From positions 1 through 48,689 of the forward strand of contig JALSJH010000105.1 in NCBI GenBank assembly GCA_026989455.1: a stretch of DNA of 48,689 nt, in the 5' to 3' direction. The DNA comes from Chromatiales bacterium (GTDB lineage Bacteria > Pseudomonadota > Gammaproteobacteria > RBG-16-57-12). The notes beneath the pieces were generated by a model, which was given only the letters and a program-made list of their open reading frames with translations, did not search any database and was not told the DNA's origin. Below are positions 3,067-15,471 of the stretch, piece after piece (positions within the stretch are counted from its first letter, which is position 1; every line of letters starts with the position of its first letter). Both the position numbers and the translations under genes were made by a program.

Positions 3067-3423
3067 TTATCTTTTAATTGGACGACGAGGCCCTTTCCGT
3101 GTCCGCGCATTGGTGCGCGTACGCTGGCCACGAAGCGGAAGTCCGCGACGATGACGAATACCGCGATAGCAGCCCATATCCATCAGTCGTTTAATATTCA
3201 TGGAAACTTCACGACGGAGGTCACCTTCGAGTGTTAGCTTTGCCGTCTCTGTTCGCAGTGACTGAAGCTCTGACTCGGCCAAATCACGAATCTTCGCATC
3301 AGTTGCAACACCGGCATTTGCACAAATTTGATGTGCACGGGTACGACCCACACCATAAATTGCAGTTAATGCAATAACAGTATGTTTATTATCTGGAATG
3401 TTTACGCCAGCAATACGCGCCAT
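3067..3423 (-). CDS. rpsM: 30S ribosomal protein S13
   Basis: 118 residues, starting [14 protein letters not shown] and ending in the basic [21 protein letters not shown] tail that reaches tRNA in the P site in family structures. S13 forms intersubunit bridges from the 30S head. AGGAG lies 8 nt upstream of the ATG. It is the first gene of the alpha operon and is preceded by its own promoter (3467-3495). The untranslated leader is only about 35-40 nt. Confidence 0.97.
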
Positions 3424-3466
3424 TCTAAAGTTCTCCTAATTAACACTGCGACCCGGAAAGCGCGCA

Positions 3467-3495
3467 ATAATACTCAATACTTAAATAACTTGCAA
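3467..3495 (-). promoter_or_regulatory. Predicted alpha-operon promoter upstream of rpsM
   Basis: On the minus strand TTGCAA (3490-3495) and TATTAT (3467-3472) are separated by exactly 17 nt and followed by the GC-rich discriminator TGCGCGC. The site lies in the 78-nt gap between rpmJ and rpsM, where E. coli also separates the spc and alpha operons. A GC-rich discriminator is typical of promoters inhibited by ppGpp. Confidence 0.7.
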
Positions 3496-12273: not shown

Positions 12274-12573
12274 TTACTCGGCGGCGCTGGTGAAATCAAT
12301 CTCACTACCGGCCTTAAGTTGGACATATGCCTTTTTGTAGCCAGAGCGCCGACCCTGGATTGCCCCAAAGCGCTTACGCTTGCCTTTAACATTGGCAACC
12401 TGAACGGAATCGACTTCAACTTCAAACAGAAGCTCTACAGCCTTCTTGATTTCAGTCTTATTTGCGTCAGTAGCCACTTTGAATACAATTTGCTGATTAG
12501 TCTCAGCAGCAACCGATGCTTTCTCAGTAATATGAGGGCCGAGTAGAACCTTCATCAAACGCTCTTGGTTCAT
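12274..12573 (-). CDS. rplW: 50S ribosomal protein L23
   Basis: 99 residues starting [24 protein letters not shown], with the long loop [29 protein letters not shown]23 is the exit-tunnel docking site for trigger factor and SRP. The FxxE-type docking residues are at least partly conserved. The ATG overlaps the rplD stop as ATGA, so translation is probably coupled. Confidence 0.96.
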
Positions 12574-13190
12574 GCTAAAGCCTCCTCTATTTGCTTGATC
12601 GCTCCAACCGTCATCAGCACCTTGTCGTAACCTACCAGTGAAACCGGGTCGATTGATGACGCACTCACAAGACCAACCTTATGCAGATTGCGTGATGCAA
12701 GATACAAATTATCATCAATGGCCTCTGGAACAATCAGAACATTTTCCAAATCCATCGCTGCAAGCTTAGCAACCAGCTCTTTTGTTTTTGGCAGTTCAAG
12801 AGAAAACTTATCAATAATAATCAAGCGATCTTGACGCAACAACTCAGAGACGATCGAGCGCATTGCGCCACGATACATCTTCTTGTTTACTTTTTGTGAA
12901 TGATCTTGTGGTGTGGCCGCAAAAGTAACGCCACCTGTTCGCCATAAGGGACTACGAATAGTACCCGCACGAGCACGACCGGTTCCTTTCTGACGCCACG
13001 GCTTAGCACCACCACCACTCACATCCGAGCGATTCTTATGGGCACGACTCCCTTGACGAGCGCCTGCCAAATAGGCCGTTACAACCTGATGAATCAACGG
13101 CTCATTAAATTCTTGCGCAAAGCTATCATCAGAGAGCTCTACGCTCTTTTTAGACTCTTTGCCTGTCGCTGTAACTAGATTCAACTCCAT
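12570..13190 (-). CDS. rplD: 50S ribosomal protein L4
   Basis: 206 residues with the tunnel-loop motif [44 protein letters not shown] (about residues 48-90). L4 is both an exit-tunnel protein and, in E. coli, the autogenous repressor of the S10 operon through a leader upstream of rpsJ. No such leader fits between tufA and rpsJ here. The start shares a base with the rplC stop (TAATG) and the stop overlaps rplW. Confidence 0.96.
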
Positions 13191-13846
13191 TACAAACTCC
13201 CCCGCGAAAGTACTTTAACCGCCGGGGATACAACAACATCACTTCCTTTGGCACCAGGAACTGCCCCTTTAACCAAAAGAATATTGCGCTCAATATCCAC
13301 ACGAACCACTTCAAGGTTTTGAACCGTACGCTGCACATTACCCATCTGGCCAGACATCTTCTTACCCTTGAATACACGACCAGGGGTTTGACACTGCCCG
13401 ATAGAGCCAGGCGTACGATGGGAAAGCGAGTTACCGTGCGTCGCATCTTTACCTGCAAAGTGATGGCGCTTGATGGTACCGGCAAATCCCTTACCGATCG
13501 TAACACCCGCCACGTCTACCTTCTGACCAGCCTCAAAAATATCAGCTTTAATCTCTGAGCCTGTCGCAAAATCATTAGTCGCTCCGTCGGCTAGACGAAA
13601 CTCCCAAAGACCTCGACCAGCCTCGACACCTGCTTTCGCAAAGTGACCAGCCATTGCCTTGGTCACTCGCGTTGCACGGCGCGTACCAACCGTCACCTGA
13701 ACTGCGTTGTAGCCATCTTTCTCGAGCCCTTTAAGCTGACTCACGCGATTAGGCTCAACTTCAATTACGGTAACAGGCAACGAGTGGCCCTCTTCCGTAA
13801 AAATCCGAGTCATACCGCGTTTGCGGCCTATTACACCAATAGTCAT
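13190..13846 (-). CDS. rplC: 50S ribosomal protein L3
   Basis: 218 residues from the ATG at 13844-13846 ([20 protein letters not shown]), with GAGGAT about 8 nt upstream. The in-frame GTG five codons earlier is not conserved. The [51 protein letters not shown] segment includes the Gln normally methylated by PrmB. L3 nucleates 50S assembly. An unusually long 117-nt gap with hairpins separates it from rpsJ. Confidence 0.95.
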
Positions 13847-13911
13847 TGTCGTTATCCTCACGCATCGATTTCGATTGACCGACGCTTAATTCAACAAAAC
13901 TTCAATATAAC

Positions 13912-13945
13912 AACGCCGCACTCCCACTGCGGACAGCACGGCGTT
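13912..13945 (-). other. Structured rpsJ-rplC intergenic RNA with two competing hairpins
   Basis: In the mRNA, AACGCCG and CGGCGTT can pair as an outer 7-bp stem (13939-13945 with 13912-13918). CCGCA and TGCGG (13928-13932 with 13916-13920) can form a shorter stem with a 7-nt loop. The two stems share bases, so they exclude each other. No T-tract follows, so this is not a standard terminator. It may be a regulatory leader for rplC-rplD-rplW. Confidence 0.45.
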
Positions 13946-13963
13946 ATTAATGAGGGGCGGATT

Positions 13964-14275
13964 CTAACTTAATTTAATCTGCACGTCTACCCCAGCAGCA
14001 AGATCAAGCTTCATTAATGCATCTACCGTCTTTTCAGTCGGATCAACGATATCCAGCATGCGCTTGTGAGTACGAATCTCATACTGATCACGCGCATCTT
14101 TATTAACATGCGGCGAGGTCAAAATAGTGAAACGCTCTTTTTTGGTCGGCATGGGAATCGGACCCTGCACATGCGCACCGGTGCGTTTTGCAGTATCGGC
14201 AATTTCACGCGCGGACTGATCAATCAAGCGATGATCAAATGATTTTAGGCGAATACGAATTCTTTGGTTAGTCAT
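13964..14275 (-). CDS. rpsJ: 30S ribosomal protein S10 (NusE)
   Basis: 103 residues, the E. coli length, starting [53 protein letters not shown]10 also acts as NusE, bridging NusB/NusG and transcription antitermination. Here it follows tufA after only 5 nt, so it is probably co-transcribed with the str genes rather than from a separate leader promoter as in E. coli. Confidence 0.97.
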
Positions 14276-14280
14276 ATTTA

Positions 14281-15471
14281 TTACTCAATAATCTTAGCAA
14301 CAACGCCCGCACCAACTGTGCGACCACCTTCACGGATTGCAAAACGCAGGCCGTCTTCCATTGCGATGGGAGCGATCAGCGATACCGTCATCTGCACGTT
14401 ATCACCTGGCATCACCATCTCTACACCCTCTGGCAGATCACACGCACCGGTTACATCCGTGGTACGGAAGTAAAACTGCGGACGATAGCCATTAAAGAAT
14501 GGCGTATGTCGGCCACCCTCATCTTTGCTCAACACATAGACTTCTGCTTCAAACTTGGTGTGAGGATTGATTGAACCAGGCTGACAAAGCACTTGTCCGC
14601 GCTCAACATCTTCACGCTTGGTGCCGCGCAACAACAGACCAACATTGTCGCCTGCACGCCCTTCATCAAGCAGCTTGCGGAACATTTCAACACCAGTACA
14701 GATCGTTTTTACGGTCTCTTTGATGCCGACAATTTCAACTTCTTCACCTACCTTGATGATACCGCGCTCGATACGACCCGTTACCACGGTGCCGCGACCA
14801 GAGATCGAGAAAACATCCTCAACCGGCATCAGGAATGCACCATCAATAGCACGCTCAGGCTCTGGAATGTAGCTATCCATTGCTTCAACCAGCTTAATAA
14901 TGGCCGGAACACCAATCTCAGATTGATCGCCTTCCAATGCCTTTAATGCAGAGCCGATAACAACCGGCGTATCGTCACCTGGGAAGTCGTACTTGTCGAG
15001 AAGCTCGCGAACTTCCATTTCAACCAGCTCAAGCAGCTCGTCATCATCTACCATGTCCGCTTTATTGAGGAACACAACAATATAAGGAACACCGACCTGA
15101 CGTGAAAGCAGTATATGCTCACGGGTTTGCGGCATTGGACCATCGGCCGCCGAACATACCAGAATCGCACCATCCATCTGCGCGGCACCGGTGATCATGT
15201 TTTTCACATAGTCAGCATGGCCTGGGCAATCAACGTGCGCGTAGTGGCGCGAGTCTGATTCATATTCAACGTGCGCTGTGGCAATTGTAATACCACGGGC
15301 ACGCTCTTCAGGTGCGCCATCTATCTGGTCATAAGCTTTAAACTCACCACCATGCGCCTCAGCCATACATTTGGTGATTGCCGCAGTCAGGGTGGTTTTA
15401 CCGTGATCTACGTGACCGATAGTGCCCACATTGACATGTGGTTTTGTGCGTTCAAATTTTTCTTTAGACAC
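14281..15471 (-). CDS. tufA: Elongation factor Tu, copy A (GTG start)
   Basis: EF-Tu delivers aminoacyl-tRNA to the ribosome using GTP. The 396-residue protein has the P-loop GHVDHGKT (residues 19-26), DCPGHADY with the catalytic His, and the NKAD guanine-specificity motif, followed by beta-barrel domains 2 and 3. The start is GTG at 15469-15471. It differs from TufB only at residue 9 (Thr here, Asn there). The nucleotide sequence from the stop codon back to 15426 is identical to tufB. It is the last str gene, 29 nt after fusA. Confidence 0.98.

What the first reader, a model, noticed from the sequence alone, without database searches (positions are those of the whole stretch)
13847..13963. 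Possible relocated L4-type leader between rpsJ and rplC
In E. coli the S10 operon leader bound by L4 lies before rpsJ. Here tufA and rpsJ are only 5 nt apart, so no leader fits. Instead a 117-nt gap sits before rplC-rplD and holds two mutually exclusive hairpins (AACGCCG/CGGCGTT and CCGCA/TGCGG). A switch here would control L3, L4 and the genes beyond while sparing S10.
Basis: partly seen in the sequence, partly recalled or inferred. Interest (0 to 1): 0.55.

Follow-up and report, generated by a model that had tools for sequence, protein, structure and literature searches.

The report
L4-type leader placed before rplC
The gap before the L3 gene carries a conserved RNA hairpin like the one in front of the E. 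coli S10 operon, where ribosomal protein L4 controls the operon, but placed one gene later so that S10 would escape the control; the same arrangement recurs in many related bacteria.

Summary
The gap is real: 117 nt between rpsJ and rplC, minus strand, with tufA 5 nt before rpsJ. That hairpin is the conserved element. A covariance model finds it at high score in 33 of 369 gammaproteobacterial genomes, all 33 directly upstream of rplC, and in a Burkholderiales-like order (28 of 30 inspected hits in the rpsJ-rplC gap). Eight of nine pairs show compensatory changes. The same octaloop hairpin lies before rpsJ in E. coli and four E. coli-like genomes, apparently the attenuator hairpin of the L4-regulated S10 leader. 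So "relocated L4-type leader" is supported in essence; the two-hairpin switch is not. Pseudomonas and others carry in the same slot a different leader resembling 23S rRNA; the two never co-occur in 282 loci. Binding by L4 is inferred, not shown. No Rfam 15 family covers the hairpin, and no paper found describes it before rplC.

The parts
13961..13989 (-). promoter-like site TAGACG-17-TAGAAT overlapping the end of rpsJ, followed by a GC-rich stretch CCGCCCC
   Evidence: 9 of 12 consensus matches; 26 of 64 leaders have a site of 9 or more matches against 5.5 expected from shuffles
   Evidence: terminator-like hairpins precede the octaloop hairpin in 27 of 64 leaders against 2.7 expected; stem kept in same-genus G001 with a changed tip
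13951..13955 (-). CCUCA, predicted to pair with UGAGG at 13856-13860 (Shine-Dalgarno region of rplC)
   Evidence: minimum-energy folds of G000 and G001; not in G003, so genus-level at most
13861..13886 (-). octaloop hairpin AGCGUCGGU[CAAUCGAA]AUCGAUGCG, the conserved element (loop 13877-13870)
   Evidence: models R1, R2, R3; covariation
13856..13859 (-). Shine-Dalgarno GAGG of rplC, directly 3' of the octaloop hairpin
   Evidence: sequence; hairpin end to start codon has median 19 nt in 64 leaders
13190..13846 (-). rplC (L3), first gene behind the leader
   Evidence: ORF; 69% identical to the annotated E. coli rplC
12570..13190 (-). rplD (L4), second gene behind the leader, inferred source of the repressor
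   Evidence: ORF; gene name by position and recall, not by a database call
13964..14275 (-). rpsJ (S10), upstream of the leader and so outside the transcript that starts at the inferred promoter
   Evidence: ORF; 81% identical to the annotated E. coli rpsJ

Best explanation
The gap is the 5' UTR of a separate rplC-rplD-... transcript that starts at a promoter over the rpsJ stop codon. It carries a translational operator: a hairpin with an eight-base loop of consensus CAAYYGNA that ends just before the rplC Shine-Dalgarno site. When ribosomal protein L4 exceeds free 23S rRNA it binds this hairpin, blocks 30S loading on rplC and, by translational coupling, lowers L3, L4 and the genes beyond. S10, made from the str transcript (tufA-rpsJ), escapes. 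The upstream GC hairpin is a terminator-like or 5'-stabilising element of unproven role. Shown: position, conservation, covariation, strand specificity, shared hairpin with the E. coli S10 leader, enrichment of promoter-like and terminator-like sites. Inferred: the start site, L4 as ligand, repression and coupling.
For: R2 search of 369 gammaproteobacterial genomes: 33 with 32.5 bits or more, all 33 directly upstream of rplC, next hit 27.3 bits. Order of G575 (Burkholderiales-like): 34 of 120 genomes with a hit at E 0.01 or better; of the 30 hits with loci, 28 lie in the rpsJ-rplC gap and 2 elsewhere. Covariation: 8 of 9 pairs with changes on both sides, 50 such cells against 13.3 shuffled, 0 of 500 shuffles. 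In 226 gaps not brought in by an RNA model, 12 of 14 sense octaloop words sit on stems of 5 bp or more, 0 of 3 antisense. E. coli and four E. coli-like genomes have [CAAUCGNA] on 5 bp before rpsJ; chance 12 of 40000 shuffles. [quoted passage not shown] A 23S-like leader occupies the same slot elsewhere, and 0 of 282 loci have both.
Against: No binding or expression data. In E. coli the part named as needed for L4 control is stem D, which has no clear counterpart here; the shared part is the tip of the attenuator hairpin. No U-run follows the octaloop hairpin here, unlike E. coli. The E. coli hairpin scores only 16 bits with R1 and was noticed after the motif was known. No octaloop like it is found in the 23S pieces at hand, so it is not an evident rRNA copy. 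Vibrio-type leaders (L059; L321, L322) lack the octaloop hairpin although V. cholerae is reported to share the L4 site (PMC10931766). Most of the 369 genomes have no strong hit.
Confidence: 0.66

Rival explanations
1. Same kind of autogenous leader, but the ligand is L3 (product of the first gene) or another protein of the operon rather than L4.
For: The hairpin lies directly before rplC in all 33 strong gammaproteobacterial cases. No octaloop of this kind is found in the 23S pieces tested, so the ligand cannot be read off the rRNA.
Against: The same hairpin stands before rpsJ in E. coli and E. coli-like genomes, where L4 is the published regulator of the operon (PMC10931766 section 24); a competing leader in the same slot resembles a 23S region that is the L4 site by recall.
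Confidence: 0.17
2. The hairpin is a processing, stability or ribosome-standby element at an internal promoter, with no ribosomal-protein ligand.
For: Stable structures lie in the first part of the leader (mean z -3.4 over 60 leaders), and terminator-like stems are frequent (27 of 64).
Against: Processing or stability would not need an invariant loop: five loop positions (C, A, A, G, A) are unchanged in 38 of 38 hairpins while the stem varies freely.
Confidence: 0.11
3. One reading: two mutually exclusive hairpins (AACGCCG/CGGCGTT versus CCGCA/TGCGG) control transcription into rplC.
For: Both repeats are present; hairpin A with a U-rich tail is terminator-like.
Against: The alternative hairpin is broken in same-genus G002 and is far shorter than the full stem of hairpin A. 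The octaloop hairpin is transcribed after hairpin A, so it cannot steer it in the usual way.
Confidence: 0.04

Closest known systems
E. coli S10-operon leader, L4-controlled (stems D and E)
   Same: Hairpin with loop CAAUCGUA on a 5-bp stem, shortly before the first regulated ribosomal-protein gene of the S10 operon; preceded by another hairpin.
   Different: In E. coli it stands before rpsJ, is followed by a U-run and acts in transcription attenuation as well as translation (PMC10931766, PMC10578931). Here it stands before rplC, has a longer stem, no U-run behind it, and no evident stem D.
23S-like rplC leader of Pseudomonas and others (seen here, no published name found)
   Same: Same slot between rpsJ and rplC, next to the rplC Shine-Dalgarno site.
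   Different: Different RNA: three loci match the bacterial LSU rRNA model at positions 330-384, the L4-binding part of domain I by recall. Never found together with the octaloop hairpin in 282 loci.
Archaeoglobi L4 leader candidate (Eckert and Weinberg 2020)
   Same: A predicted L4 leader before rplC-rplD-rplW-rplB (Table 1 passage of PMC7247131).
   Different: Archaeal, rated '?', and its structure was not compared here.

Membership tests
E. coli-type L4-regulated S10 leader | lies before rpsJ, the first gene of the operon | tested here: not met
   leader lies between rpsJ and rplC; tufA-rpsJ spacer is 5 nt
E. coli-type L4-regulated S10 leader | hairpin with loop CAAUCGNA (read here as the attenuator hairpin, stem E) | tested here: met
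   window loop CAAUCGAA; E. coli and four E. coli-like genomes CAAUCGUA or CAAUCGAA; identity with stem E is my reading from its place before the U-run
E. coli-type L4-regulated S10 leader | stem D upstream, needed for L4 control | tested here: inconclusive
   hairpin A stands in that place but shares no evident sequence with the E. coli hairpin GCUCCC..GGGAGC
E. coli-type L4-regulated S10 leader | U-run behind stem E (Rho-independent attenuator) | tested here: not met
   UGAGGAUAACGACA follows the hairpin
E. coli-type L4-regulated S10 leader | L4 binds and represses | not testable with these tools
   needs binding and reporter experiments
23S-like leader of the Pseudomonas type | similarity to LSU rRNA near model positions 330-384 | tested here: not met
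   no LSU match to the window at gathering or to L001 at E 1
any Rfam 15 family | match over threshold in the gap | tested here: not met
   the E. coli-like locus L308, which holds an rpsJ leader, also has no Rfam match at E 0.1

The most novel reading that the evidence does not exclude
The octaloop hairpin is an old L4 operator of the beta-gamma proteobacteria whose original place was before rplC, so that L4 controlled L3 onward while S10 stayed with the str transcript. The textbook E. coli layout, with S10 under L4 control, arose when the S10 and str operons were separated and the operator moved ahead of rpsJ. Pseudomonads and relatives instead filled the same slot with a copy of the 23S L4 site.
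Probability: 0.45. Interest if true: 0.72.

Novelty: new variant of a known kind. Interest (0 to 1): 0.6.

Why it matters
L4 control of the S10 operon is a classic of gene regulation, and a 2024 review states that its site is conserved in enterobacteria, Haemophilus and Vibrio but not in Pseudomonas and is a late invention of the gammaproteobacteria (PMC10931766, section 24). These data suggest instead that a related operator is spread over many beta- and gammaproteobacterial families, one gene downstream, and that Pseudomonas has its own 23S-like leader in that slot. This predicts which gene escapes control (S10, which also works with NusB in antitermination) and gives a compact 26-nt hairpin that can be tested at once.

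Tried and rejected
(2) 23S mimicry by the window leader: no octaloop with a stem of 4 or more pairs in the 23S pieces of G001 and G052, longest shared words 8-9 nt; G000 itself yielded no 23S. (3) SD sequestration by CCUCA as the general mechanism: present in G000 and G001, absent in G003. (4) R1/R2 hits away from rplC (for example G195:C202, G161:C218 and L276-L279, which hold neither rpsJ nor rplC): treated as chance. (5) Vibrio- and Alteromonas-like leaders before rpsJ: no octaloop hairpin, so the motif does not cover all rpsJ leaders. (6) Literature: Allen 1999, Stelzl 2003, Zengel 2002 and 1996, Worbs 2000 and one NAR paper looked up by DOI are not held, so the published map of stems D and E was not seen. 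Eckert and Weinberg 2020 (abstract, outline, passages), Naville and Gautheret 2010 (passages), the NAR 2024 50-genome survey (passages) and the other papers opened describe no rplC leader in Gammaproteobacteria in the parts I saw (searches; reads). Their supplements were not readable.

Bias to note: rows of A5 were chosen by the loop pattern plus 4 or more pairs beside it, so the inner pairs are partly selected; pairs in columns 2-5 were not, and are paired in 28, 28, 29 and 28 of 29 rows. Many loci came in through R1, R2 or R3, which also favour stems; the count on 226 gaps not brought in by a model is. The rplC places used for searches are the best-listed part of the 328 genomes with a match, not all. 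Many loci are Pseudomonas, so the 65 versus 54 exclusivity count is not independent per locus. Only 3 of 9 loci with a 23S-like leader by eye that were scanned reached E 0.1 or better against the LSU model (L061 yes, L048 no; L036, L026 yes, L302, L304, L316, L069, L079 no). Five of the 35 hits were not inspected.

Full report
What is there. The genes run on the minus strand: tufA (14281-15471), 5 nt, rpsJ (13964-14275), 117 nt, rplC (ATG at 13846), then rplD. The 117-nt gap folds unusually well on the transcribed strand (-41.6 kcal/mol, z -3.5) and not on the other (z -0.5). A promoter-like site, TAGACG-17-TAGAAT, overlaps the rpsJ stop and is followed by CCGCCCC. Next come a GC-rich hairpin A (13946-13911), a second hairpin AGCGUCGGU[CAAUCGAA]AUCGAUGCG (13886-13861), the Shine-Dalgarno GAGG and the start codon of rplC. 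Rfam 15 has no match in the gap.

Conservation. Two same-genus genomes keep the second hairpin unchanged, the same-family genome has a changed stem with an unchanged loop, and a distant genome (G052) has CUCUGCAGU[CAAUCGUA]AUUGCAGAG at the same place. A model of this hairpin (R1) and a richer one (R2) were run on 369 gammaproteobacterial genomes. With R2, 33 genomes score 32.5 bits or more, and the next hit is 27.3. All 33 lie directly upstream of rplC, checked against the rplC places and gap sequences; for G169 the upstream rpsJ was not in the fetched stretch. In a phylum sample of 398 genomes, further hits fell in the rpsJ-rplC gap of genomes that look like Burkholderiales. A third model (R3) found hits in 34 of 120 genomes of that order at E 0.01 or better; of the 30 hits held as loci, 28 are in the rpsJ-rplC gap and 2 are elsewhere, and 5 more hits were not inspected. 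In the window itself R3 gives 37.7 bits at this place and at most 12.5 elsewhere.

Covariation. Over 29 distinct hairpins, 8 of 9 pairs show changes on both sides; 50 cells change on both sides against 13.3 in shuffles, and no shuffle of 500 reaches this. With Burkholderiales-like and E. coli-like hairpins added (38 in all) the result holds: 66 against 18.3. Loop positions C, A, A, G and A are invariant in 38 of 38, giving CAAYYGNA. In 226 gaps not brought in by any RNA model, 14 octaloop words occur on the sense strand, 12 of them on stems of 5 or more pairs, and 3 on the antisense strand, none with a stem. The hairpin ends a median of 19 nt before the start codon (64 leaders), where a bound protein would block ribosome loading.

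Link to L4. The E. coli S10 leader, fetched from a RefSeq genome, has CCCAU[CAAUCGUA]AUGGG just before a U-run upstream of rpsJ (fold). Four unnamed E. coli-like genomes have the same loop, once as CAAUCGAA, three of them with a varied stem (L308, L309, L311; L354). Such a hairpin appears in 12 of 40000 shuffles of the E. coli leader. I noticed it after knowing the motif, and its R1 score is only 16 bits, so the link rests on the exact loop, position and covariation rather than on the model score. The eLife paper PMC10578931 (passages) names an attenuator hairpin stem E and a stem D required for L4 regulation; that the octaloop hairpin is stem E is my reading from its place before the U-run. 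[quoted passage not shown]

The same slot elsewhere. In Pseudomonas, Azotobacter, Vreelandella and other genomes the rpsJ-rplC gap holds a different, very conserved leader. In L061, L036 and L026 it matches the bacterial LSU rRNA model at positions 330-384 with E 2e-6 to 1e-5; six other loci that look alike by eye gave no LSU match at the limits used (L048; L302, L304, L316, L069, L079). That this rRNA region is the L4 site is recalled. Over 282 distinct loci, 65 have the octaloop hairpin before rplC, 54 have the 23S-like word pattern and none has both. In 53 of 57 octaloop loci with enough sequence tufA lies within 124 nt upstream of rpsJ; in the 5 E. coli-like loci with the hairpin before rpsJ none has tufA within 600 nt (leaving out L264, whose rpsJ start is off the locus). 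This fits a simple rule: where str and S10 are fused the operator sits behind rpsJ, and where they are apart it sits before it. The rule is not complete: 58 of 70 loci without either element also have tufA within 600 nt. A published reconstruction places a bfd-bfr insertion between str and S10 in the Gammaproteobacteria (PMC8046335, passage).

Other parts. A promoter-like site of 9 or more matches lies between the rpsJ end and the hairpin in 26 of 64 leaders against 5.5 expected; the region before the hairpin folds with mean z -3.4 (60 leaders). A terminator-like hairpin precedes the octaloop hairpin in 27 of 64 against 2.7 expected, the window's hairpin A among them with a weak tail. Because it is made before the octaloop hairpin, its role in L4 control is unclear.

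Verdict. The leader is a new variant of a known kind: it fails two features of the E. coli leader (place before rpsJ, U-run behind the hairpin), meets one (the octaloop hairpin), and L4 binding is untested.

Noticed in passing
L061 2436-2484, L036 2434-2488, L026 2436-2484; also L302, L304, L312, L313, L316 gaps by eye: Pseudomonas, Azotobacter, Pseudomaricurvus and others carry between rpsJ and rplC a leader that resembles 23S rRNA (LSU model positions 330-384), apparently a copy of the L4-binding part; no published description found.
   Followed up: partly
L054 (Woeseiaceae MAG), rpsJ-rplC gap of 490 nt: Two octaloop hairpins in tandem before rplC, [CAAUCGUA] and [CAAUCGAA], on different stems.
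   Followed up: no
window 3391-3484, minus strand: Rfam Alpha_RBS (S4-controlled alpha operon leader), 47.4 bits: another E. coli-type ribosomal-protein control site in the same cluster.
   Followed up: no
gaps of L179, L197, L202, L213, L217, L225, L228, L235, L243: Leaders without the octaloop hairpin share, by eye, a promoter-like site and a GGCCCGG..CCGGGCC-type hairpin soon after it, before rplC.
   Followed up: no
G169 (L255), 597-1107 of contig 20: Octaloop hairpin 11 nt before rplC but no rpsJ found in the 450 nt upstream: the operon may start at rplC there.
   Followed up: no
L290 (G614), upstream of rpsJ: A tRNA-like sequence stands just before rpsJ in place of tufA (by eye, no tRNA search run).
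   Followed up: no
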